A stretch of 64,000 bases of DNA from Lachnospiraceae bacterium (GTDB taxonomy: Bacteria; Bacillota; Clostridia; Lachnospirales; Lachnospiraceae). Location: contig JAFSYI010000041.1 of the NCBI GenBank assembly GCA_017450065.1, forward strand, positions 1 to 64,000. Reading direction: 5' to 3'. Position 1 is the first letter of the stretch; every line of letters begins with the position of its first letter. Of this stretch, positions 3,086 to 21,900 are shown in pieces. Below the pieces are notes generated by a model. That model did no database searches and was not told the origin of the DNA. It saw only the letters and a program-made list of their open reading frames with translations. The position numbers and the translations under genes are program-made.

Positions 3086-3147
3086 TATTGATTAAGAAAG
3101 TGCGTCATGTGCGGCGCTGGAAAAATCTTAATCGGAGGTGTTTGTCT

Positions 3148-4632
3148 ATGTGTAAACCAATTAACCTTGGCGGTCATGCCGCCTATCAGACAAAGATGAT
3201 ATCTTTGCTCAAGCAATACTATCCTGATTCTTTCACTCGTTTCGGCCCTTCCCTCTGGAATACGATTGGCAAATTTTATTCCATGGATCTTACCCAGATT
3301 GATGTAATAATGCAGGACCGCTACTCTATATTCGGTCCAATCCCAAGACTTCCTTCAGATATGATTCGTTCCATGATGGTATCTCTGGTTATGCAGAAAC
3401 CTAACTACACAACCTGGAGCGAAGAGTTAAAAACCAACCATCTTGCTGCAATCCTTAGCGGATTTCATCCCGATGATACTCCCGGGGTAGGTACCTTCTA
3501 TGACTTCTGTGACCGTCTTTGGATGTCCGATAAAGATAACATGTTAGATCACGCCCAGCCTCTAAAAAAGAGAGAAGTCGAAAAGCCTAAGAACCCTGAT
3601 GATAAAGCTGCTCCCATAGAAAAAATCTCAGTGGAAGAACTCATCAATCAGCTTAAATCAACACCTTTATCAACTGGCACTCCCTATGCAAGGCTCTTTC
3701 AGATATTCCATGATGTCTTCCTTATGCATTCATCTGATCTTGGACTTATTGACATGGATAAGCTCGTCCTTTCGGGTGATGGTACAGAAGTAGTAACCTC
3801 AGCCAGAAACAGATACCGGAAGCTTTGTAATTGCAAAGACAGAAACTGTTCCTGCAATCGCTGGTATTCCCAACCAGATACTGACTGTGGCTATGATTCT
3901 TCAAGGCACTTGTTCTACTACGGATATGATATGTACATGTTCACAGCCGCAGATTCTGAAAATGACCTCCCAGTATTTCCTCTTCTTAACAGAGCATCTA
4001 TGCACGATTCCTTTGGGCTATGCTATACCTACCATGCCATGAAAGCATTTCTCAAAGAGGCAAATGTCACAGAGGCTCTACTTGATTCAGCACATGATGT
4101 TATGGCTATATACAAGTTCTGTCAGGAAAACTCTATTGCCGCAATCATCGACCTCAATGAACGAGGAGGCCTGAATTTCAAGTACCGGGATACCTACACC
4201 ATTGGCAAAGATGGTATTCCTGTTTGCCAGGCTGGACTTAAAATGATCCGTGATGGCTATGAAAAAGGAAGAATGCGATACAAGTTCAGGTGCCCTAACT
4301 GCTATCATTGTGACGGCATACACTGTGATTATAAGTGTTCCGACTCTGACTATGGCCTTGTAGTCCATGTTCCCACAAAGGAAAATCCTCGTATATTTAC
4401 TGTTCCTGCAAGAGATTCAAAGGAATGGAAGTTAGAATACAACAAGCGTACTTCTTCAGAAAGATGTAATAAGCGAGAAAAGATTGACTACCAATTAGAA
4501 AACGGCAGGCACCAATCTACAAAGATGTGGTACTGCCGCCTCTATTGCATCATGATGTGTCAGCATCTAGATGCCTGGGGCAAAGCTCAATCCGATAACC
4601 CTATCAAAGATATATTCGCTCAAGCCGCCTGA
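3148..4632 (+). CDS. DDE transposase of an insertion sequence (IS4/IS1182-like)
   Basis: A 494-residue transposase. Residues about 15-130 form the N-terminal DNA-binding part, and the RNase H-like core carries candidate DDE residues D211 (LVLSGDGTE), D313 (ALLDSAHD) and E438 (RTSSERCNKRE). Cys clusters at about 226-235 (CNCKDRNCSC) and 382-396 (CPNCYHC, then HCDYKC) look like metal-binding inserts. The frame is open from 3088, but GGAGGTG at 3134-3140 places the start at 3148. The frame is intact, so the copy may be active. Family assignment within the IS4/IS1182/ISNCY groups is tentative; being a DDE transposase is firm. It is one of few plus-strand genes in this part of the window. Confidence 0.88.
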   Translation: MCKPINLGGHAAYQTKMISLLKQYYPDSFTRFGPSLWNTIGKFYSMDLTQIDVIMQDRYSIFGPIPRLPSDMIRSMMVSLVMQKPNYTTWSEELKTNHLAAILSGFHPDDTPGVGTFYDFCDRLWMSDKDNMLDHAQPLKKREVEKPKNPDDKAAPIEKISVEELINQLKSTPLSTGTPYARLFQIFHDVFLMHSSDLGLIDMDKLVLSGDGTEVVTSARNRYRKLCNCKDRNCSCNRWYSQPDTDCGYDSSRHLFYYGYDMYMFTAADSENDLPVFPLLNRASMHDSFGLCYTYHAMKAFLKEANVTEALLDSAHDVMAIYKFCQENSIAAIIDLNERGGLNFKYRDTYTIGKDGIPVCQAGLKMIRDGYEKGRMRYKFRCPNCYHCDGIHCDYKCSDSDYGLVVHVPTKENPRIFTVPARDSKEWKLEYNKRTSSERCNKREKIDYQLENGRHQSTKMWYCRLYCIMMCQHLDAWGKAQSDNPIKDIFAQAA

Positions 4633-5532
4633 TGTTTAGTTGATCAACTGATAGTATTCTACCACATTGATCAAAAAAGTCACTCAAAACAGGTGCTGTG
4701 TTAAAGTACGCCTTTTTTAGGACATATATCACAGAATCATCGCCTTCATCTTTCTTTTGGGGATAGTATTTACTTTTCAATGTTCATTAGGGGCGACTCC
4801 CCTCTATTTATGGCCTAAATGCCCTTCAATTCCGAAAGGCTATTTTCCGACAATTCATTTGATTATTTCTATTATGTCAGTATACTATTTCAATCAGTCC
4901 CGTATATTGTCTCAATTGTTCCAATATACAGTTTCAATTGTTTCAATATAATTCGATGTCTCGATACTTTCGGGCTTCTTAGCCATTTGCCATATAACAT
5001 CTACCGAAGTATTTATAGAAATCGTTTCAATCGCTATAATACCTATCTTTTTTTATTTAGTCAATATGCAACATGTGTTCTATGCCGTGTCTGATTTTCG
5101 TAATTTTCGTTAACACCACATGTCCTTGTACCCCATCAAACAAACAAATCAATATGTTGTAAATCTTGCTCGCAAGAATTTTTTTCCAAAATTCAGACAG
5201 AGGGACGGTTCTTTTGTCTTGTCACCCATCCTGCTATTCTGATTATCTTTACCTTATAATACAAAAATACATCATCCCTCATACCTCTTATTTGAGTGCA
5301 TTTGCTTCAGGTACCATTAACACTACTTTCGTTATTGTATATGTTTCACGCATTATTGTTCTTCTTTTTAGCCTTTTTCCTAATGAGATTCTATTTTTAT
5401 TGGAAGCCTCATCACATTTGTTTTCATCTCTCACCCTCTTTCTCAGTAGCCACACTCGATAGTCCATTATCTTATTGTAATTCGCATCAACCATCTCCGT
5501 TTCACAAGTGTATAAAAACAATTATTTTTCTT
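4633..5532. other. 900-bp AT-rich region between the transposase and the next gene
   Basis: No convincing coding region on either strand; the frames present are short and of low-complexity composition. It holds a 17-bp near-direct repeat (TCAATTGTTCCAATATA at 4912-4928 and the same with one change at 4934-4950) and a dispersed repeat copy at 5201-5227. It may contain the right end of the insertion sequence and decayed DNA. Confidence 0.5.
5201..5227 (+). repeat. Dispersed repeat, copy near the end of the membrane-protein pair
   Basis: Contains GGACGGTTCTTTTGTCTTGT. It is identical over 22 nt to the copy at 11065-11090 and closely similar to the one at 7463-7494, all in the same orientation. 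The string lies downstream of the minus-strand membrane-protein genes. Confidence 0.85.
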
Positions 5533-6213
5533 CTATCCAATCACATCAAGATTACTGAGATACTCCCTAACCTTTCCGTTAACCTCTTCATACTTAATGT
5601 TGATCTCTCTGGTTCTATTATAATCTTCTTGCTCAAAACTATTCTTATCTTCAGAACGGTTAAACACATCAAAACGTCGTTCATATGAATTCAGCTGTGA
5701 AGACATCATTGAAAGAATATCTCTATATCCTCGATAAAAGTCCTCCGGGATAAATGGGGCAATTGAATAAAGATAATTCTGGGCCTCAACTACTGAATTA
5801 GATGCTTTATTATAATGATCTTCATCCTGTTTTTTTCGTACATGCTCGTCTGCCGGAACATAATTCAAGCCATATGGTATCATTATCTCACAATCTCTAA
5901 CAGCATCAAAAAAGCACTTGGTCAGATTCTGATATATTTCAAATTCTGCATCAAAGCGTTTTACACTGATATGCTGCTTAGTGCTTAGGTTAATCCTGTG
6001 CTCTTCTAACTTTTTATCAATTTCCGCTTTATATGCTTCTATTTCTTTATCAAGTTTCATCTGATATCTGGATTGAAGGCGGTCAGCAATCTTGTCAGAA
6101 GCAAACTTTACCACAGCCGCTACTATTACTGCTCCTCCACCAACAGATGCTATAACGGATAATACAAAGCCCCATATTGTAGATATCGAGAAATATACAT
6201 TTGTTGCAGCCAT
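5533..6213 (-). CDS. Membrane-anchored coiled-coil protein, unknown function
   Basis: 226 residues. One N-terminal TM segment (about 11-36, Gly/Ala/Val-rich) is followed by a charged helix (about 45-80, QMKLDKEIEAYKAEIDKKLEEH) likely to form a coiled coil, then an all-helical C-terminal region. Not a family I can name; single-TM plus coiled-coil proteins of this size occur often in accessory and defence regions. AGGAAG just upstream supports the start. It lies 77 bp downstream of the 401-residue membrane protein on the same strand and is probably co-transcribed with it, and perhaps with ietAS further upstream. Confidence 0.65.
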   Translation of the reverse strand: MAATNVYFSISTIWGFVLSVIASVGGGAVIVAAVVKFASDKIADRLQSRYQMKLDKEIEAYKAEIDKKLEEHRINLSTKQHISVKRFDAEFEIYQNLTKCFFDAVRDCEIMIPYGLNYVPADEHVRKKQDEDHYNKASNSVVEAQNYLYSIAPFIPEDFYRGYRDILSMMSSQLNSYERRFDVFNRSEDKNSFEQEDYNRTREINIKYEEVNGKVREYLSNLDVIG

Positions 6214-6290
6214 ATGCTTCCTACACTAATCCCTTCTTTTTGCTACTAACGCATATATAACAGTTTCCTGTAATCTTTGAAAGGAGTTCT

Positions 6291-7496
6291 CTACTTCAAA
6301 TAATTGATTAGCAGACCAATTAACGGAATGAGAATAGACGAAACAACAGTAAAAATGTTTTTATATGAAAATGTCATCCTTCTCTTTGCCATTTTAATCT
6401 TTTCTTCAATGAGTAAAAGTTTGTGATTTCTATCTTTACACATTTTAATTTCCTTATCATATTCACTCATTAACTTAAACCGTCTTATACGCATACTGTT
6501 TAATAACTCCCTATATGGGACATACAAATAGATAAGAGTAATAATCAAAATCGTCATAACTGATGCAAGGACTATGTCGCCTCTATCAACGATCACCTTC
6601 ATAACACCGCTATCGGTAAACCTTAGATAGCAGACTGTGTAAATCACCAATAATCCTATATATAGCATTGCAAAAGAAAAATCTGCTGCAATAATATTAA
6701 GAAGTTCTACGACACTCTCGTTCTGATCATACTCCTCATCATTGTAGTTAAATACTTTTCCTTCCTTATCATTGGCACAATAAAACACAATAAATCCAAT
6801 TTCGTAAACCATGATGAGCAAAGAAGCAAATATATCCCAACTCATACAAAAGAAAAGGAAAAAATACAAGTGCAAGCCTATAGGAAGCATAATGAACCAG
6901 CAGTTGTTGGATGTTTGAAGTGTAATGAGGCAACACAATGCACCTCCTACTATTGTTCCTGCAATTACAAGTATTGCCGGGAAATTATACTTCTTCTTAT
7001 TCTCTAACTCTTGTCTCTGTGCTGGAATATTTTCCTGAAAGCCACTATCAAAAATAATACTTTTGCACGTGTCAAGTTTATTTGAATAGTATGCTGATAG
7101 CAGGTATGAAAATATAAAAAAAGCATTATTGCAAAGACTGCTTCCCCAATCATCTAAATAGGTAAACATTCTTACATCTTTCCAAAAGGTTCCACAGTAC
7201 ATATTACAGGCAAAATTGAAATAGACAATAAGCAATGGAACCATATAGAACAATGCACGAAAGAGAATCGAATCATACTTTCTTGTCCATCGTTGAAATA
7301 CAAGGGCTAAATTAAACTCTCTCGATAAATCAAACCAATGCAATGCTTTATGGCAGTGTGAATCATTTGGTTGTTGGAATACTTTATTTTTCTTACAACT
7401 CTTTGAGGTATTATTCAGCATATAATTAATAGCCTTATTTTTTTTAGCATATGTATTTCTTAAGACAGATGGTCGGTTCTTTTGTCTTGGCACCAT
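6291..7496 (-). CDS. Polytopic membrane protein, unknown function
   Basis: Up to 401 residues with about seven hydrophobic segments (roughly 78-100, 125-142, 170-190, 196-230, 265-290, 300-322 and 383-400). A charged, helical, probably cytosolic stretch (about 325-375) lies before the last one. No recognised domain. The first residues (MVPRQKNRPS) are encoded inside a dispersed repeat copy, and there is no good ribosome site before that ATG, so the true start may be internal (for example M26). It sits 65 bp after ietS and 77 bp before the coiled-coil gene on the same strand, which makes it a candidate accessory component of the ietAS locus. No homologous system comes to mind. Confidence 0.6.
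   Translation of the reverse strand: MVPRQKNRPSVLRNTYAKKNKAINYMLNNTSKSCKKNKVFQQPNDSHCHKALHWFDLSREFNLALVFQRWTRKYDSILFRALFYMVPLLIVYFNFACNMYCGTFWKDVRMFTYLDDWGSSLCNNAFFIFSYLLSAYYSNKLDTCKSIIFDSGFQENIPAQRQELENKKKYNFPAILVIAGTIVGGALCCLITLQTSNNCWFIMLPIGLHLYFFLFFCMSWDIFASLLIMVYEIGFIVFYCANDKEGKVFNYNDEEYDQNESVVELLNIIAADFSFAMLYIGLLVIYTVCYLRFTDSGVMKVIVDRGDIVLASVMTILIITLIYLYVPYRELLNSMRIRRFKLMSEYDKEIKMCKDRNHKLLLIEEKIKMAKRRMTFSYKNIFTVVSSILIPLIGLLINYLK
7463..7494 (+). repeat. Dispersed repeat between ietS and the membrane-protein gene
   Basis: Contains GGTCGGTTCTTTTGTCTTGG, with the flanking GACAGA also present near the copy at 5201. It overlaps the annotated start of the 401-residue membrane protein and separates that gene from ietS. 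Confidence 0.8.
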
Positions 7497-7561: not shown

Positions 7562-10033
7562 CTATACATCTATCTGAACAACATTTCCTATTTTAGTCTG
7601 TATTGCTGTATATAAATCCACTGATGCTTCAGGTGTTGAAAGTGTTACAATTAGTGAATATCTCTGAACGTTATCATATTTCATCAAGTAACTCCTCTCT
7701 CTCCACCATCCAACAACCGGAAATACCGCTATATATTCGCAGTCGCATAAATCAGAAGCGTTAATATCTATCATCATATCAGAGTGAACAGAACCAACAT
7801 CCCTATTATCTGATCCCAAATACCACCGCGCACTTCCGGATGTTCCGTATCCGGTATCTTTTTTATCATCTCGCATTTTAGCATTAATTCTTTTCTCAAA
7901 ATCGCCCAGCGTCTCATTAGAATTAATAACATCAAACCGTAAACCGCATGACGAATATCTGTATTTGTTTTTCCAACCTACCTGGCCGGGCCCCGGTTCT
8001 ATAAAATACGACAAAGTAACTCTCAATGTTACCGGCGTGCTTCCCAATGATAACAATAGTTCCTTTGGCCAGGGCACTTTATGAATATGCATTTCATTCA
8101 TTGACTTCTTGCTATAAGGCTTCAGCTTGCCTTCAATTATCATATTTACATGGTTGTTCATACACATTATTGCTTTTTCTATATTAGGTATTCCATATCC
8201 ACACGTCTTTAATAATTCCCGTCTTCCTGTGGTTTTCTTATCATCCGGGCAAAACTGTTTCTTCATTTCAGCAGTCCAACTTGCAGAATGAATAATAAGT
8301 GCGCGGATTGTTTCCGGCCATAAATCCGGGTATTCAGACATTAGCTGTGCTGCAAACCAGGCCGCCTGCCCAGTAGCCGAACTTGTAGCATTAATAACGT
8401 CATACTGTTTTATCAACGGATTTCTGCTTGTGGTAAGCAACGATAAATCATCGCAGGCAATATAATCAAACCCGTTCGTAGCCATATTTCCTCCATCAAA
8501 CAATACTTCAGGTTTTATTGGCCAGTTTTTATTCCACATTAATGACGTTGAACTGAATGGTGATATTCCATCTATCTGTGCAACAGCCTGATATCCTTTG
8601 AGTTTAGGATTATCAATAAAATCACACCCCGCATATGCACCAACTGTTATTGCATTCCATGCCTGTCCGGGACTTTCAACTGAATGTATCCTGTTTGCAC
8701 CGGGATAAGCAATATCCGCCAATTCGTTCGGTTGAACATTACCGGCACTTACAATTATCAGGCGTTTTATATCCTCTTCACTTGCTCCTGACGCAATGTT
8801 GTCAACTTCCCCAGACCATGATGTGGGGCTTCCGTCCTCTGTATTATATATCGATGAAGTAACGGCCATACAAATAACCCTATTAGACTTAGGATTTACC
8901 ACCTCTGCCATGTTAATTGCCTGTTTAGTCAGATCTCCATACAGCTGAACAGGGTTTTCACCTTTAGGAGGAAGTATTTTTACAGATTCTATCTCGTGAG
9001 TAATGGTAAACAGCTCATCTGAAAGAAGTTTCTTCTTCAAGTCAAAGTAAAGGGTTACTCCAGCCATCTCAGTTCCATGACCATTATGGTCGGATGCTTT
9101 CCACGTAGGGTTTACCGCTTGTATATGTTCATCAACTGTTGCAATTGAAAGTAATGGATGCCCATTATTCAGCCCTGTATCCAATATGCATACCGAGGTG
9201 CCATCCAATGCAATAGATGTCCTCTTTAAAAGATCATCATTCCATTCTTTTTGCTCTTTTCCGGATAACTCTGTAAAAAATGATGTCGGTTCTTGAGCCG
9301 GTCTAATTTCTGCTATATAACAACACGCATCTATCAGATTTTCGAGATTAATTCCATCAACAAAAATAAGCTTAACCAAACGCTCCGGAAATACTATTCT
9401 TTCTTTTTTTATTGGAATTCCCAACTCATAACAAACAGTCTCAGCAGATGCTTCCACCTGTTCATATGCTTCTACGCTATTACTGTTATTCACCGAAACT
9501 CTGAACCATACTTCAACCCATTTCTTCTGTTCCTGTGGAATAGCATTATTATCTCCAAACCAAAAAGAGCCCAATACCGCTCGGCGAATATCATCTATAC
9601 TCGTTATCAGCTTCTCATGCTTCGGGTTTCCCTTTTTTGTCAATTCGCTCTTATATTCATTTAGCTGTTTAAGAAAGAATTGTTCTTTTCCATTTGGGAC
9701 ATAAACAGTAGCTCTTGTCATATTTCTCTTCGGGTCGGCATGAACATTTAGCAACGAAATACCTTGTGTTCGATTATCAAGGCTTTTGATTTCCAAATCA
9801 TACTCAGGAGCACTTACAAACTCAAGATACATTCCCTCCTTATGTCTTACCGCTGCAGCACTTTTTTTATTCGTCTCGTCCTGATAACATTTTTCCAATA
9901 AACTCTTTATATAATCAGCATGTGAAATTTTATCACGTTTAGGATATCTGGTTTCACCTCCGCCTTGTGGCGAAAGTGCAAACTTACGAGAAGTATGGGT
10001 GTTTGTTAATACAATATTTCTCTTTTCGACCAA
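7562..10033 (-). CDS. ietS: Subtilisin-like serine protease of an ietAS-type system
   Basis: 823-residue S8-family protease. An N-terminal region shared by this family (GGGETRYPKRDK near 24-35, YLEFVSAPEYDLEIKSL near 69-85) precedes the subtilase domain (about 275-620). Catalytic residues are visible: D285 (CILDTG), H319 (HNGHGTE), oxyanion Asn N432 (VSAGN) and S551 (NATSSATG). About 200 C-terminal residues form a probable beta-rich domain. No signal peptide, so it acts in the cytoplasm. Start is TTG, with AAGGAGG placed inside the end of ietA 10 nt upstream, so translation is coupled. Known: ietA/ietS pairs of AAA ATPase and protease act as a plasmid stability toxin-antitoxin (Ti plasmid) and were reported as anti-phage loci. 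Here the protease would be the effector. Confidence 0.9.
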   Translation of the reverse strand: MVEKRNIVLTNTHTSRKFALSPQGGGETRYPKRDKISHADYIKSLLEKCYQDETNKKSAAAVRHKEGMYLEFVSAPEYDLEIKSLDNRTQGISLLNVHADPKRNMTRATVYVPNGKEQFFLKQLNEYKSELTKKGNPKHEKLITSIDDIRRAVLGSFWFGDNNAIPQEQKKWVEVWFRVSVNNSNSVEAYEQVEASAETVCYELGIPIKKERIVFPERLVKLIFVDGINLENLIDACCYIAEIRPAQEPTSFFTELSGKEQKEWNDDLLKRTSIALDGTSVCILDTGLNNGHPLLSIATVDEHIQAVNPTWKASDHNGHGTEMAGVTLYFDLKKKLLSDELFTITHEIESVKILPPKGENPVQLYGDLTKQAINMAEVVNPKSNRVICMAVTSSIYNTEDGSPTSWSGEVDNIASGASEEDIKRLIIVSAGNVQPNELADIAYPGANRIHSVESPGQAWNAITVGAYAGCDFIDNPKLKGYQAVAQIDGISPFSSTSLMWNKNWPIKPEVLFDGGNMATNGFDYIACDDLSLLTTSRNPLIKQYDVINATSSATGQAAWFAAQLMSEYPDLWPETIRALIIHSASWTAEMKKQFCPDDKKTTGRRELLKTCGYGIPNIEKAIMCMNNHVNMIIEGKLKPYSKKSMNEMHIHKVPWPKELLLSLGSTPVTLRVTLSYFIEPGPGQVGWKNKYRYSSCGLRFDVINSNETLGDFEKRINAKMRDDKKDTGYGTSGSARWYLGSDNRDVGSVHSDMMIDINASDLCDCEYIAVFPVVGWWRERSYLMKYDNVQRYSLIVTLSTPEASVDLYTAIQTKIGNVVQIDV

Positions 10034-10038
10034 TCCGG

Positions 10039-10992
10039 TTATGCCTCCTTATATATCATATGCCGTTCATCTATCAGTCTTAATAGATCTGAAGTTGATA
10101 TTTTTTTGTCATATAATATGGATGTCTTTATTGCATCGTCACAAATGCGGATAATCTCAGCATGGCTCAAACCATTTGCACAATCCACTATGTCAGAAGA
10201 CACTACAAACTCTTCATCATATGCCTCCAGTTTGTATTTAAACAGCCTGATTACTTCATCCTCTAAAGGCAAGTCATAGTGAAGTACATCATCAAATCTC
10301 CTGAATAAAGCTTTATCTAACAGTTTTTGATTATTTGTAGCTGCAACTATAATAGATTCCGAATCATCCATCTCAATAAACTGAAGAAATGAGTTCAATA
10401 TCCTTCTCATTTCACCTACTTCATTATCCAGATTTCGATCTGAACCTATGGCATCAAATTCATCAAAGAAGTATACTCCTTCCTCTGATGAAATGTATTC
10501 AAAAACCTGATGGAGTTTGGCACTGGTTTCACCCATATATTTCGTCACTAATTTATCCATTTGTACTGTATACAATGGCAGTCCTAATTCTGATGCAATA
10601 ATTGATGCCGTAAAAGTTTTTCCCGTTCCCGGTGCACCCTCCATCAAAAGCTTACGTCTGTTTGTCAGACCGAATGACTGAAGTTTTCTTCTATTATGAT
10701 ATTCGCATAAAACTCTCTGCAATCGTTGTTCCAGATCCCGAGATACAATTAAATCCTTCATGAACACAGAGGGTACAGACATCTGTAACATTGTATTTCC
10801 CGAGTGTATCCTTAAGATACGCCCTGAATTTGCAGACAAAGAATCCACTGTTTTCTTTAACTCACGCGCTGTATTGTCGTGACCAATTCTTGCTTCATGA
10901 GCGGCAATCTGCAAAACAACAGTCTTAAATTTTTCATCATCACGATCTGTATAAGCTCTAACAAGATTCTTTATCTGATCCGCTGTCGCCAT
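10039..10992 (-). CDS. ietA: AAA ATPase of an ietAS-type system
   Basis: 317-residue AAA ATPase: helical N-terminal region (1-75), Walker A GAPGTGKT (119-126), Walker B YFFDE (174-178), sensor 1 AATNN (217-221) and arginine finger LFRRFD (229-234). The frame is open further upstream, but AAGGAGGT directly before M12 of that longer frame fixes the start at 10992. It is followed after 5 nt by the protease gene. In the ietA/ietS family the ATPase restrains or controls the protease and is the antitoxin partner in the plasmid version. A promoter candidate lies at 11105-11133, and a dispersed repeat copy lies in the leader between promoter and start. Confidence 0.9.
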   Translation of the reverse strand: MATADQIKNLVRAYTDRDDEKFKTVVLQIAAHEARIGHDNTARELKKTVDSLSANSGRILRIHSGNTMLQMSVPSVFMKDLIVSRDLEQRLQRVLCEYHNRRKLQSFGLTNRRKLLMEGAPGTGKTFTASIIASELGLPLYTVQMDKLVTKYMGETSAKLHQVFEYISSEEGVYFFDEFDAIGSDRNLDNEVGEMRRILNSFLQFIEMDDSESIIVAATNNQKLLDKALFRRFDDVLHYDLPLEDEVIRLFKYKLEAYDEEFVVSSDIVDCANGLSHAEIIRICDDAIKTSILYDKKISTSDLLRLIDERHMIYKEA

Positions 10993-11064
10993 ACAAGCCA
11001 CCTCCTTCCCGAAACTCATGTTCACATAATAACATTTTTACAATCTTACCGTCAACACAGGCAT

Positions 11065-11090
11065 CGGGACGGTTCTTTTGTCTTGTCTCC
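11065..11090 (+). repeat. Dispersed repeat in the ietA leader
   Basis: Contains GGACGGTTCTTTTGTCTTGT and is enclosed by CACAGG and CCTGTG, which can pair. In the ietA transcript it would form a leader hairpin between the promoter and the ribosome site. Confidence 0.85.
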
Positions 11091-11195: not shown

Positions 11196-11603
11196 ATGAT
11201 CAAAAACCAATGGTACGCTGTCCTCTCATCTCACCAGATTAAATCCGGCATGGTAACCGCCGCAAAACGCTTCGGCCAAAACCTCATCTTTTTCCGGACT
11301 TCCACCGGAGAGCTCGTCTGCCTAAACAGCCTCTGCGCTCACCGCGGTGCTTCACTTGCCAAGGGATGCGTAAATAATGATCATATTCAATGCCCCTTCC
11401 ACGGCATAGAATATGAATCTACCGGCAAATGCGTACACATTCCCTCAGAAGATAAGGGCTCTAAAGAGGATTATTCCCGATTCCACCTGATACATTACCC
11501 CGTGCATGAAATCGGCGGTATTGTCTTCATATGGTACGGAGATAAGGATCCTGTCGGAGAACCGGATTATTTCGATGCTATGACCGACCCTGCCATTATA
11601 TGA
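11196..11603 (+). pseudogene. Rieske [2Fe-2S] N-terminal domain, probable truncated oxygenase
   Basis: 135 residues that form a complete Rieske domain: cluster ligands in CAHRG (Cys and His) and CPFHG (Cys and His), 16 residues between the two pairs, with the typical NQWYAVLSS start of ring-hydroxylating oxygenase alpha subunits. Those enzymes are about 300-350 residues with a C-terminal iron catalytic domain that is absent here; the frame stops soon after the Rieske fold. It could act as a small ferredoxin-like protein, but loss of the catalytic half by deletion at the edge of the decayed conjugative element is more likely. Good promoter and ribosome site remain. Confidence 0.75.
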
Positions 11604-11643: not shown

Positions 11644-11748
11644 ATGATAAAAATAATGCGTAATCTGAACGATATCGGACGTGAGATTGCCGTAGATGTG
11701 GCAAAAGGATTAGAAATGCAGGAGAAATATTCGCATATCCCTATTTAA
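11644..11748 (+). pseudogene. 34-codon remnant after the Rieske gene
   Basis: A short frame with a natural-looking composition (RNLNDIGREIAVDVAKGLEM) and a stop inside the following palindrome. No ribosome site is visible. It looks like the C-terminal end of a deleted protein; I cannot name it. Confidence 0.3.
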
Positions 11749-11780
11749 CCTACAGGTTAATCCCTTAACCTGTAGGTTAA
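11745..11780. repeat. Nested palindrome, two 16-bp arms each itself palindromic
   Basis: TTAACCTACAGGTTAA at 11745-11760, a TCCC spacer, then TTAACCTGTAGGTTAA at 11765-11780. The two arms are exact reverse complements, and each arm is a 7-bp inverted repeat around two central bases, giving four TTAACCT half-sites. It lies at the edge of the conjugative-element remnant. Confidence 0.9.
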
Positions 11781-19249: not shown

Positions 19250-21262
19250 TTAATACAGCTTCGCACCTGCCGGAATGCTGTTGCTCACCCTGATAAGATT
19301 GAGCATTTCCTTGCTTCCCTCCTTGTGCACGGCCGATAATAACATACCGCATGAATCAATTCCCATCATCTTCTTTGGAGGCAGGTTCGTTATCGCAATC
19401 AACGTATCACCTATAAGCGATTCCGGATTGTAGTACTCCTGAATACCGCTTAAAATCACTCGTTCCGTGCCTGTACCGTCATCAAGCGTGAACTTAAGAA
19501 GCTTGTCTGATTTGGGAACTGCAACACAATCTATTACCTTGACCGCTCTGAAATCCGCCTTGCTGAAAGTATCAAAATCAACCATATCTTCAAACAAAGG
19601 TTCTATCTTAATCTTAGGTCCTCTGCTATCTGTAGTGCTTAAGGTTTTGAATCCGTACCTTGCTGCGGACTTCATTGTGGGAAAGAATAAAACTTCTCTT
19701 ATACTCTGGCTGTTAGTAAGAAGCATCGTGAGCCGGTCTATCCCATATCCGATACCACCCGTGGGCGGCATACCTATCTCGAGCGCATTAAGGAAGTCCT
19801 CATCTGTATGGTTTGCTTCCTCATCGCCTGCTGCCGCAGCGGCATCCTGAGCCTTAAAGCGCTCCCTCTGATCGATCGGATCGTTAAGCTCGGAATAAGC
19901 GTTGCACATCTCCCATGTATTTATGAAAAGCTCGAACCTCTCAACAAGGTCCGGTCTGTCGGGCTTCCTCTTGGTAAGAGGGCTTATCTCAACCGGATGA
20001 TCCATTACGAATGTAGGCTGTACCAGATTTTCCTCAACATACTCCTCGAAGAAAAGGTTTATTATATCGCCTTTCTTATGATAAGGCTCGTAGTGGATAT
20101 CCTTCTCATCGGCAAGCTTCTTTGCTGCCTCGGTATCGGGAACCTGATCAAAATCGATCCCCGCGTATTTCTTTATTGCATCTATCATGGTGATACGCTC
20201 AAAAGGCCTGCCAAAGTCAAGCTCGATATCACCGTATTTGAATTTCGTTGTTCCAAGAACCTCCTGAGCCACATGCCTGAACATGTTCTCGGTCAGATCC
20301 ATCATTCCATTGTAATCTGTGTATGCCTGATAGAGTTCCATCAGCGTGAATTCGGGGTTGTGCCTTGTATCAAGGCCCTCATTCCTGAACACGCGGCCTA
20401 TCTCATACACCCTCTCAAGTCCACCGACTATAAGTCTCTTAAGATAGAGCTCAAGTGATATACGGAGCTTAAGGTCCTCGTCAAGTGCGTTAAAGTGAGT
20501 CTCAAAAGGCCTTGCAGCCGCACCGCCCGCATTTGCTACAAGCATGGGCGTCTCAACTTCCATGAATCCCTGCGAATCAAGATAGTTTCTTATAGTTGAA
20601 ATAATACGTGATCTCTTTACAAATGTCTCCTTGACTTCCGGATTCATTATTAGATCAACATATCTCTGCCTGAATCTTAAGTCTGTATTGGTCATTCCAT
20701 GGAATTTCTCCGGCAGTATCTGAATGGACTTAGATAGCAATACTATCGATTCTGCATGAACGGATATCTCACCCGTCATTGTCCTGAACACATATCCCTT
20801 GATACCTACGATATCACCTATATCATATTTCTTGAAATCGGCATAAGACTCTTCGCCTACTGCATCCCTTGCTACATAAACCTGGATATTGCCGGGCTTA
20901 TCCTGGACATTGCAGAATGCAGCCTTACCCATGATTCGTTTACTCATGATACGTCCCGCAATGCTTACGTTTATCGGATTCGCATCCATTGTAGCCCTGC
21001 GCTCCTCATAATCAGCCTTCCTGGCCGCCCTTGCTTCAGCCTCGTCAAGACCGCTCACATCCACCGGCGCACGGTCACCTATAAGCTTAGCCTCCAGCTC
21101 CTCATATTCAGCCTTGGCATCTACCGAATGATGGGTCTGGTCGTATTTGGTTATGATAAAAGGATCCTTGCCTGCTTCCTGAAGGGCTGCAAGCTTCTCT
21201 CTCCTTACCTTAAGGAGCTGTCCTATATCCTGCTGCTGTTCTGTGTTCTGCTCGTTCTTCAT
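19250..21262 (-). CDS. lysS: Lysyl-tRNA synthetase (class II) with C-terminal tRNA-binding domain
   Basis: 670 residues. An N-terminal OB-type anticodon-binding domain (about 60-200) is followed by the class II catalytic core with motif 2 (VFRNEGLDTRHNPEFT, about 290-306) and motif 3 (GIGYGIDRLTM, about 496-506). The usual enzyme ends near residue 510. Here about 110 further residues form a Trbp111/EMAPII-like tRNA-binding OB domain (DFRAVKVIDCVAVPKSDKLL, then LPPKKMMGIDSCGMLLSA). This extension is known in some clostridial LysRS and strengthens tRNA binding. AGAAAGAG precedes the ATG. It lies downstream of greA, a conserved pairing. Confidence 0.97.
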   Translation of the reverse strand: MKNEQNTEQQQDIGQLLKVRREKLAALQEAGKDPFIITKYDQTHHSVDAKAEYEELEAKLIGDRAPVDVSGLDEAEARAARKADYEERRATMDANPINVSIAGRIMSKRIMGKAAFCNVQDKPGNIQVYVARDAVGEESYADFKKYDIGDIVGIKGYVFRTMTGEISVHAESIVLLSKSIQILPEKFHGMTNTDLRFRQRYVDLIMNPEVKETFVKRSRIISTIRNYLDSQGFMEVETPMLVANAGGAAARPFETHFNALDEDLKLRISLELYLKRLIVGGLERVYEIGRVFRNEGLDTRHNPEFTLMELYQAYTDYNGMMDLTENMFRHVAQEVLGTTKFKYGDIELDFGRPFERITMIDAIKKYAGIDFDQVPDTEAAKKLADEKDIHYEPYHKKGDIINLFFEEYVEENLVQPTFVMDHPVEISPLTKRKPDRPDLVERFELFINTWEMCNAYSELNDPIDQRERFKAQDAAAAAGDEEANHTDEDFLNALEIGMPPTGGIGYGIDRLTMLLTNSQSIREVLFFPTMKSAARYGFKTLSTTDSRGPKIKIEPLFEDMVDFDTFSKADFRAVKVIDCVAVPKSDKLLKFTLDDGTGTERVILSGIQEYYNPESLIGDTLIAITNLPPKKMMGIDSCGMLLSAVHKEGSKEMLNLIRVSNSIPAGAKLY

Positions 21263-21362
21263 ATTTTAACTCTTTCTCTTTCTACGGGTAAGTCATAAGG
21301 ACTCCACCGCTTCGCCCTAAAGGACTAGCTTCGCGTCGCGGTACCCCTCATGACATTTCGTC

Positions 21363-21398
21363 GGAGCCATCCTTAATTACGCTCTGCGTAATGGCTCC
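21363..21398. repeat. Hairpin between greA and lysS
   Basis: GGAGCCAT and ATGGCTCC enclose a further ATTACGC/GCGTAAT pairing. No T-run follows on the minus strand, so it is not a standard terminator; it may be a repeat or an mRNA-processing hairpin. Confidence 0.55.
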
Positions 21399-21402
21399 TC
21401 CT

Positions 21403-21900
21403 CTAATAATCCTTATCACCGGGACGGATTATCTGAAGAACCTTATATTTAAGCTCGCCCGCCTGTGTCTCAACCGTAACGGTCTGTCCCTTCTTGGCTC
21501 CGATAAGCGCCCTGCCTACAGGTGATTCATTGCTTATCTTACCGTTGAGCGAATCAGCCTCTGTCGATCCGACTATCTTATATTCCATATCCTCTTTGAA
21601 TTCCAAATCTCTTATCTTAACCTTACACCCGATACTGATCTTGCCTGTATCTACCTCTTCATCGAGGACTACCTCTGCATTCTTAAGTATCTTCTCGATT
21701 TCCTCGATACGTGCTTCTATATCGCGCTGCTCATCCTTGGCTGCATCATACTCTGCATTCTCGGAAAGATCGCCCTGTTCCCTTGCTTCCTTAATCTTCT
21801 GAGCTACCTCTGCTCTTCTAACTACCTTAAGATCATGCAGCTCATCCTCGAGCTTCTTAAGTCCCTCATAAGTTAAGATATTTTTCTTCTCCATTTCCAT
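21403..21900 (-). CDS. greA: Transcription elongation factor GreA
   Basis: 165 residues, the usual length. The N-terminal coiled coil (about 8-78) carries the acidic tip region NAEYDAAKDEQ that reaches into the RNA polymerase secondary channel to trigger cleavage of backtracked RNA. The C-terminal FKBP-like domain contains ISNESPVGRALIGAKKGQTV. AGAGGATGAT upstream supports the start. It is followed by lysS and preceded by dusB on the same strand, as in many Clostridia. Confidence 0.97.
   Translation of the reverse strand: MEMEKKNILTYEGLKKLEDELHDLKVVRRAEVAQKIKEAREQGDLSENAEYDAAKDEQRDIEARIEEIEKILKNAEVVLDEEVDTGKISIGCKVKIRDLEFKEDMEYKIVGSTEADSLNGKISNESPVGRALIGAKKGQTVTVETQAGELKYKVLQIIRPGDKDY

What the first reader, a model, noticed from the sequence alone, without database searches (positions are those of the whole stretch)
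7562..10992. ietAS-type AAA ATPase and subtilisin-like protease pair
Two adjacent genes 5 nt apart: an AAA ATPase with complete Walker A, Walker B, sensor and Arg-finger motifs, and an S8 protease with the full D285/H319/S551 triad plus the N-terminal region typical of the ietS family. From established knowledge, such pairs act as a plasmid toxin-antitoxin (Ti plasmid) and as a phage-defence locus. The cytoplasmic protease has no signal peptide, which fits an abortive or toxic effector. The Lachnospiraceae setting on a mobile island is little studied.
Basis: partly seen in the sequence, partly recalled or inferred. Interest (0 to 1): 0.75.

Follow-up and report, generated by a model that had tools for sequence, protein, structure and literature searches.

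The report
Ordinary IetAS toxin-antitoxin gene pair
Two neighbouring genes encode a protein-cutting enzyme and the molecular motor thought to keep it in check, an intact-looking new copy of the known IetAS pair that in relatives helps mobile DNA persist and is linked to virus resistance; it is a sound identification but not a new kind of system.

Summary
On the minus strand, ietA (10039-10992, 317 aa, AAA+ ATPase) is followed after 5 nt by ietS (7562-10033, 823 aa, S8 protease). PADLOC names both (IetA 1.4e-70, IetS 2.7e-30). IetS aligns over nearly its full length, 33-41% identical, with 9 relatives from plasmid and phage records. The triad D285/H319/S551 is invariant in 73 of 73 IetS; K125, R231 and R232 in 69 of 69 IetA. 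A complete IetA lies directly upstream in 76 of 77 loci with room to tell, and the two proteins diverge in parallel (r = 0.875). Hydropathy shows no signal peptide. Others showed toxin-antitoxin behaviour for three relatives (one known to me through citations only). Likely mechanism: a cytosolic subtilase toxin restrained by an AAA+ motor; the molecular steps are inferred. Against strict equivalence: NCBIfam cut-offs are not met. New member of a known kind; modest interest.

The parts
10039..10992 (-). ietA: AAA+ ATPase, 317 aa, antitoxin/regulator
7562..10033 (-). ietS: subtilisin-like (S8) protease without signal peptide, 823 aa, TTG start, toxin/effector
11026..11055 (-). promoter-like TTGACG-18-TATTAT (10 of 12, TG before second hexamer) upstream of ietA
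   Evidence: promoter matches in the region are no commoner than in shuffles (20 found, mean 24.5), so only its position speaks for it
11001..11009 (-). ribosome-binding site GGAAGGAGG of ietA
   Evidence: read from the sequence
10044..10050 (-). ribosome-binding site AAGGAGG of ietS, inside the ietA 3' end
   Evidence: read from the sequence
10615..10638 (-). IetA Walker A, residues 119-126
   Evidence: G119, G122, G124, K125, T126 in 69 of 69
10528..10542 (-). IetA aromatic pore loop K-Y-M-G-E, residues 151-155
   Evidence: F or Y at 152, M or L at 153, G154 and E155 in 69 of 69
10297..10302 (-). IetA arginine-finger pair R231 R232
   Evidence: 69 of 69
9299..9523 (-). IetS beta-alpha-beta-beta-alpha-beta module, residues 171-245, propeptide-like (inferred)
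   Evidence: secondary structure of the model; no sequence relative among solved structures
8192..9202 (-). IetS Peptidase_S8 domain, residues 278-614, with D285, H319, S551
7565..8158 (-). IetS C-terminal part with many strands, residues 626-823

Best explanation
An intact-looking, single-copy IetAS module. IetS is a cytosolic subtilase able to poison the cell by cleaving proteins; IetA, encoded first and probably translationally coupled, is a hexamer-forming AAA+ motor that keeps IetS harmless as long as it is made and powered. If the element is lost, or infection disturbs IetA or presents a trigger, IetS is released and the cell stops growing or dies, which stabilises the element and limits phage spread. 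Shown here: gene order, intact catalytic and ATPase motifs, conserved pairing, parallel divergence, no signal peptide by hydropathy, threading-type pore loop, mobile context. Shown by others for relatives: toxicity of the protease alone and neutralisation by the ATPase. Inferred: hexamer, direct contact, trigger, targets, and that this copy is expressed and active.
For: PADLOC IetA/IetS hits. Near full-length alignment with 9 IetS from plasmid and phage records, one from Agrobacterium, and 42-50% identity of IetA to 8 partners there. Triad 73 of 73; Walker and Arg residues 68-69 of 69. IetA directly upstream in 76 of 77 loci, gap -20 to 99 nt. Mantel r 0.875, 0 of 2000 permutations as high. 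IetA model closest to proteasomal, PAN and FtsH motors; pore loop [FY]-[ML]-G in 69 of 69. IetS model closest to subtilases. Relatives covering at least 80% of IetS in 379 of 484 matching plasmid records and 50 viral-contig loci. No full-length match in the 36 other genomes of its genus searched. Toxicity and neutralisation: PMC5006074 section 4; PMC6755753 passages. Association with phage resistance, mechanism unknown: PMC11878078 and PMC9958689 passages.
Against: NCBIfam equivalog cut-offs for anti-phage IteA/IteS are not met, so function need not be identical to that of the tested pairs. No expression, toxicity or phage data for this copy. In SGI1 the operon gave no post-segregational killing from its own putative promoter. 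The propeptide reading is weak: no sequence relative in the PDB in a single-sequence search, and superposition on propeptide-bearing subtilases is poor (rmsd about 23 A for 3afg and 3whi).
Confidence: 0.82

Rival explanations
1. The pair is primarily an addiction module of a mobile element (plasmid or ICE stabilisation, incompatibility), and phage defence is a by-product or absent.
For: Remnants of a conjugative element nearby: RepA_N, ParA-type, ParB_N, part of a VirD4-like gene; relatives on 484 plasmid records, 341 typed conjugative; TA evidence in SGI1 and syn3A.
Against: Neighbours of relatives include restriction and defence genes (7 HsdS, 4 HsdR_N, 2 JetD_C of 122 scanned; no control set was scanned); papers report association with phage resistance. 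The element here looks decayed, so an addiction role may be vestigial.
Confidence: 0.4
2. An energy-dependent protease: IetA unfolds and feeds substrates to IetS, as FtsH or PAN-proteasome do, rather than restraining it.
For: IetA model closest to proteasomal, PAN and FtsH motors; aromatic pore loop in 69 of 69.
Against: In SGI1 the protease is toxic without the ATPase and the ATPase abolishes toxicity; in syn3A loss of the ATPase alone is lethal.
Confidence: 0.12
3. A secreted or surface subtilase with a chance AAA neighbour.
For: Many S8 proteases are secreted (general knowledge).
Against: No signal peptide or transmembrane segment by hydropathy; IetA neighbour in 76 of 77 loci; parallel divergence.
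Confidence: 0.01
4. A four-gene cargo: ietAS together with the two downstream genes for membrane-type proteins (5533-7496) acts as one system.
For: All four genes share low GC3 (0.30-0.34 against 0.43-0.56 for seven other genes) and are interspersed with the same 35-nt repeat.
Against: The two genes have no match on plasmids; the one other family genome with a relative of the 401-aa protein (G332) is not among those with IetS, and no IetA or IetS is seen in its 4-kb locus; a repeat copy lies between them and ietS. The 226-aa protein was not searched in genomes.
Confidence: 0.07

Closest known systems
IetA/IetS of Agrobacterium Ti plasmid pTiC58 (Yamamoto 2009, seen only as cited in PMC5006074 and PMC6755753)
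   Same: AAA ATPase plus S8 protease; relatives on another Agrobacterium plasmid (pAtCFBP7129c, L007) have the same gene order and align at 37% (IetS) and 46% (IetA). The pTiC58 proteins themselves were not aligned here.
   Different: Different clade (Bacillota-rich); beside a decayed element rather than on an intact plasmid; no functional data
SgiAT (S026-S025) of Salmonella Genomic Island 1 (PMC5006074, section 4 and passages seen)
   Same: AAA ATPase antitoxin and subtilisin-like toxin on an integrative mobile element
   Different: Not aligned here; host and element differ
_0132/_0133 of the syn3A minimal cell (PMC6755753, passages seen)
   Same: AAA ATPase gene first, S8/S53 peptidase gene second; loss of the ATPase alone is lethal
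   Different: Not aligned here
ietAS anti-phage system (PADLOC models; Gao 2020 recalled, not read)
   Same: Both proteins hit PADLOC models
   Different: Below the NCBIfam IteA/IteS equivalog cut-offs

Membership tests
IetAS | AAA protein matches IetA models | tested here: met
   PADLOC 1.4e-70; also phrog_3757, unnamed function, 1.3e-84 over 1-309
IetAS | Protease matches IetS models | tested here: met
   PADLOC 2.7e-30, best stretch 276-818; phrog_3964, unnamed function, over 6-820; near full-length alignment
IetAS | ietA directly upstream of ietS, same strand | tested here: met
   5-nt gap; 76 of 77 relatives
IetAS | Intact Asp/His/Ser triad and Walker/Arg-finger motifs | tested here: met
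IetAS | No secretion signal | tested here: met
   hydropathy only
NCBIfam IteA/IteS anti-phage equivalogs | Curated whole-protein score cut-off | tested here: not met
   201 of 510 bits; 32 of 900 bits
Toxin-antitoxin pair | Protease toxic alone, neutralised by the ATPase | not testable with these tools
   shown by others for SGI1 and syn3A relatives
Anti-phage defence system | Protects cells from phage | not testable with these tools
   literature on relatives only
Subtilase with subtilisin-type propeptide | Inhibitory propeptide fold docked on the active site | tested here: inconclusive
   order of strands and helices fits; no sequence match; poor superposition

The most novel reading that the evidence does not exclude
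IetA is not a passive antitoxin but a threading AAA+ motor that spends ATP to keep IetS's own N-terminal propeptide-like modules locked in the inhibitory state, so that any phage act that stalls the motor or drains ATP fires the protease: a subtilase gated by an unfoldase, a control logic not described in the passages seen here.
Probability: 0.3. Interest if true: 0.6.

Novelty: new member of a known kind. Interest (0 to 1): 0.3.

Why it matters
The mechanism of IetAS is called unknown in the papers whose passages I saw. The conserved pore loop, the propeptide-like module and the parallel divergence of the pair give concrete residues to mutate. This copy looks intact and comes from a Bacillota-rich clade of the family, so it could serve as a second model beside the proteobacterial pairs. 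As a genome annotation it is ordinary.

Tried and rejected
Secreted subtilase: rejected. Longer ietA from the GTG at 11025: rejected, because relatives' annotated starts align with the ATG, which has a good ribosome-binding site. A second copy in the genome: none in the held assembly, which is 88% complete. A solved structure of the pair: none recognisable in the listings (13 hits, ordinary subtilases; best 60 of 266, p97-, AFG2-, Rix7- and FtsH-type motors). The IetA N-terminal bundle as a known domain: one insignificant hit (E 0.74). Propeptide by sequence: no hit. The 35-nt repeat as the ends of a mobile cassette: not supported; in other genomes the same core is a many-copy, often paired REP-like element. 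Repeat in viral contigs, exact 22-mer: none. A second copy of the lysS-like 3' end as distal attachment site: nothing beyond 15-nt matches in the window. Promoter matches are not above shuffles. Paper searches aimed at IetAS or its mechanism listed no structure or mechanism paper by title or abstract start; this covers only the open-licence library.

Full report
Observation. The minus strand of the window holds ietA (10039-10992, 317 aa) and ietS (7562-10033, 823 aa), 5 nt apart. The ietS ribosome-binding site lies in the last codons of ietA, so translation is probably coupled. PADLOC assigns both with E-values of 1.4e-70 and 2.7e-30; Pfam gives AAA and Peptidase_S8; PHROGs gives phrog_3757 and phrog_3964, both of unnamed function. 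NCBIfam's IteA/IteS equivalog models are hit but well below their cut-offs, so by that standard this is a relative of the anti-phage proteins, not an equivalog.

Family. tblastn of IetS found 484 plasmid records, 379 with at least 80% of the query covered, all under 60% identity, and 2 phage records, 1 with at least 80%. A scan of viral contigs gave 50 loci. IetS was aligned for the window and 72 of the 80 genome loci; 8 were left out as broken, cut or without an assigned start or with a doubtful one (L022, L024, L026, L060, L070, L077, L081, L085). The triad and N432 are invariant in 73 of 73. In 69 IetA (window and 68 loci) G119, G122, G124, K125, T126, E178, T219, N220, R231 and R232 are invariant, and D177 is D in 68 and E in 1.

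Pairing. One search assigned IetS starts in 83 loci (74 genome loci, 8 plasmid loci, 1 phage record). Six more genome loci got no start and were dropped; four of them (L022, L024, L077, L081) have an IetA ORF upstream and two (L060, L070) begin at a contig edge. Of the 83, 77 have at least 1 kb upstream, and 76 of those have a complete IetA ORF at a gap of -20 to 99 nt. The exception, L061, has a shorter IetA-like ORF (343 bits) for which the script found no start. Pairwise divergence of IetA and IetS is correlated over 68 pairs, the window's included (r 0.875, 0 of 2000 permutations as high). A functional pair, inherited together, is very likely.

Distribution. The tree (quick method) puts the window's IetS beside a Spirochaetales MAG (62% identity) in a 13-row clade with 9 Bacillota rows. 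Phyla need 29 label changes against a minimum of 17; against free mixing, labels are still far more clustered than in shuffles (mean 46.5, 0 of 200 as low), and the tool warns that extra changes are no proof of transfer. In the genus 0 of 36 other genomes has a full-length match (one weak 82-residue match in G025). In the family 6 of 299 genomes match at 1e-20: four nearly full length including the window's own, one cut at a contig end (G357), one distant (G201). This sporadic pattern fits a horizontally moving module. In its own assembly it is single copy.

Setting. RepA_N, ParB_N and ParA-type genes and the C-terminal part of a VirD4-like coupling protein lie between 13 and 19 kb, next to a lysS-like gene (19250-21262; name recalled from the sequence), so the locus borders a decayed conjugative or integrative element. 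ietA, ietS and the two genes after them have GC3 of 0.30-0.34, against 0.43-0.56 for seven other genes tested. Three copies of a 35-nt repeat lie at 5192-5226, 7460-7494 and 11056-11090. A 16-nt stretch of it occurs exactly twice in the 3.2-Mb assembly, both times here. A 13-nt core occurs at five places, three here and two elsewhere, where the flanks do not match; with one mismatch there are 17 places against 13 for the reversed control, so only the longer core is telling. A 17-nt core occurs in 6 of 100 family genomes including this one, and 73 times in G139, with inverted pairs among the listed places; the reversed control has none. That is REP-like. I infer that the block came from a genome rich in such repeats. 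For neighbours of relatives, one search listed 171 proteins from 75 loci (ORFs over 900 aa left out), printed 150, and I gave 122 of these to (28 dropped by hand, nearly all short): 7 match HsdS, 4 HSDR_N, 4 phage integrase, 2 JetD_C (only the 25 commonest families are shown, and no control set was scanned).

Structure. The IetA model (pLDDT 83.3, pTM 0.69, 69 rows) has three N-terminal helices, a low-confidence linker and an AAA+ module closest to proteasomal Rpt, PAN and FtsH-type motors. Its pore loop is [KR]-[FY]-[ML]-G-E in 69 of 69, as in protein-threading motors (general knowledge). The IetS model (pLDDT 89.1, pTM 0.78, 73 rows) has an N-terminal part with two strand-helix modules (about 68-151 and 171-245), an S8 core and a C-terminal part rich in strands. 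The second module has the order beta-alpha-beta-beta-alpha-beta, as in subtilisin propeptides (general knowledge); its last strand carries E242 (73 of 73) and R244 (70 of 73). The best fold hits are subtilases, several by title solved with propeptides (3afg, 9ues, 3whi), but rmsd to 3afg and 3whi is about 23 A and a single-sequence search found no solved relative, so docking on the active site is unproven.

Mechanism. For relatives, others showed that the protease is toxic and the ATPase neutralises it (SGI1: PMC5006074 section 4), and that loss of the ATPase alone is lethal while loss of both is tolerated (syn3A: PMC6755753 passages). Papers describe association with phage resistance and an unknown mechanism (PMC11878078 and PMC9958689 passages); a review table lists ietAS in a row on altered functional phage proteins (PMC10286901 passage). 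In SGI1 the operon did not kill after segregation from its own putative promoter. I take IetS as the toxin or effector and IetA as its active, ATP-dependent keeper. Trigger and targets are unknown.

Verdict. The family label for this genome (Lachnospiraceae) could not be checked. The finding is a new member of a known, widespread system. Its value is in the testable residues, not in novelty.

Noticed in passing
5192-5226, 7460-7494, 11056-11090: Three same-orientation copies of a 35-nt REP-like repeat around ietAS; its 16-nt core (exact) occurs nowhere else in the held assembly, yet a 17-nt core is many-copy in some family relatives (73 in G139).
   Followed up: partly
6291-7496 and 5533-6213 (-): Two genes of unknown function after ietS: a 401-aa protein with seven hydrophobic segments (1 of 298 other family genomes has a relative, 28%) and a 226-aa protein with one N-terminal hydrophobic segment (weak phrog_26391 hit). 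Possible further cargo.
   Followed up: partly
19250-21262 (-): lysS-like gene (name recalled) of 670 aa: matches in the 28 other genus genomes that have one end by residue 558, so about 110 or more C-terminal residues are extra here. In six relatives printed, differing DNA follows the gene; by eye one reads like a serine recombinase and one like ParA, suggesting an insertion hotspot.
   Followed up: partly
21325-21405 (-): GA-cis RNA (RF02987), 44.1 bits, between the lysS-like gene and a greA-like gene (name recalled); also in 2 of 6 relatives scanned.
   Followed up: no
11196-11603 (+): A Rieske-domain ORF of only 135 aa, divergent from ietA; it looks cut short against 350-aa relatives.
   Followed up: no
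3088-4632 (+): IS1182-like transposase ORF (NCBIfam 2.9e-12, below cut-off) near the low-GC3 block.
   Followed up: no
11745-11780: Perfect inverted repeat, two 16-nt arms 4 nt apart, between the Rieske ORF and the conjugative-element remnants.
   Followed up: no
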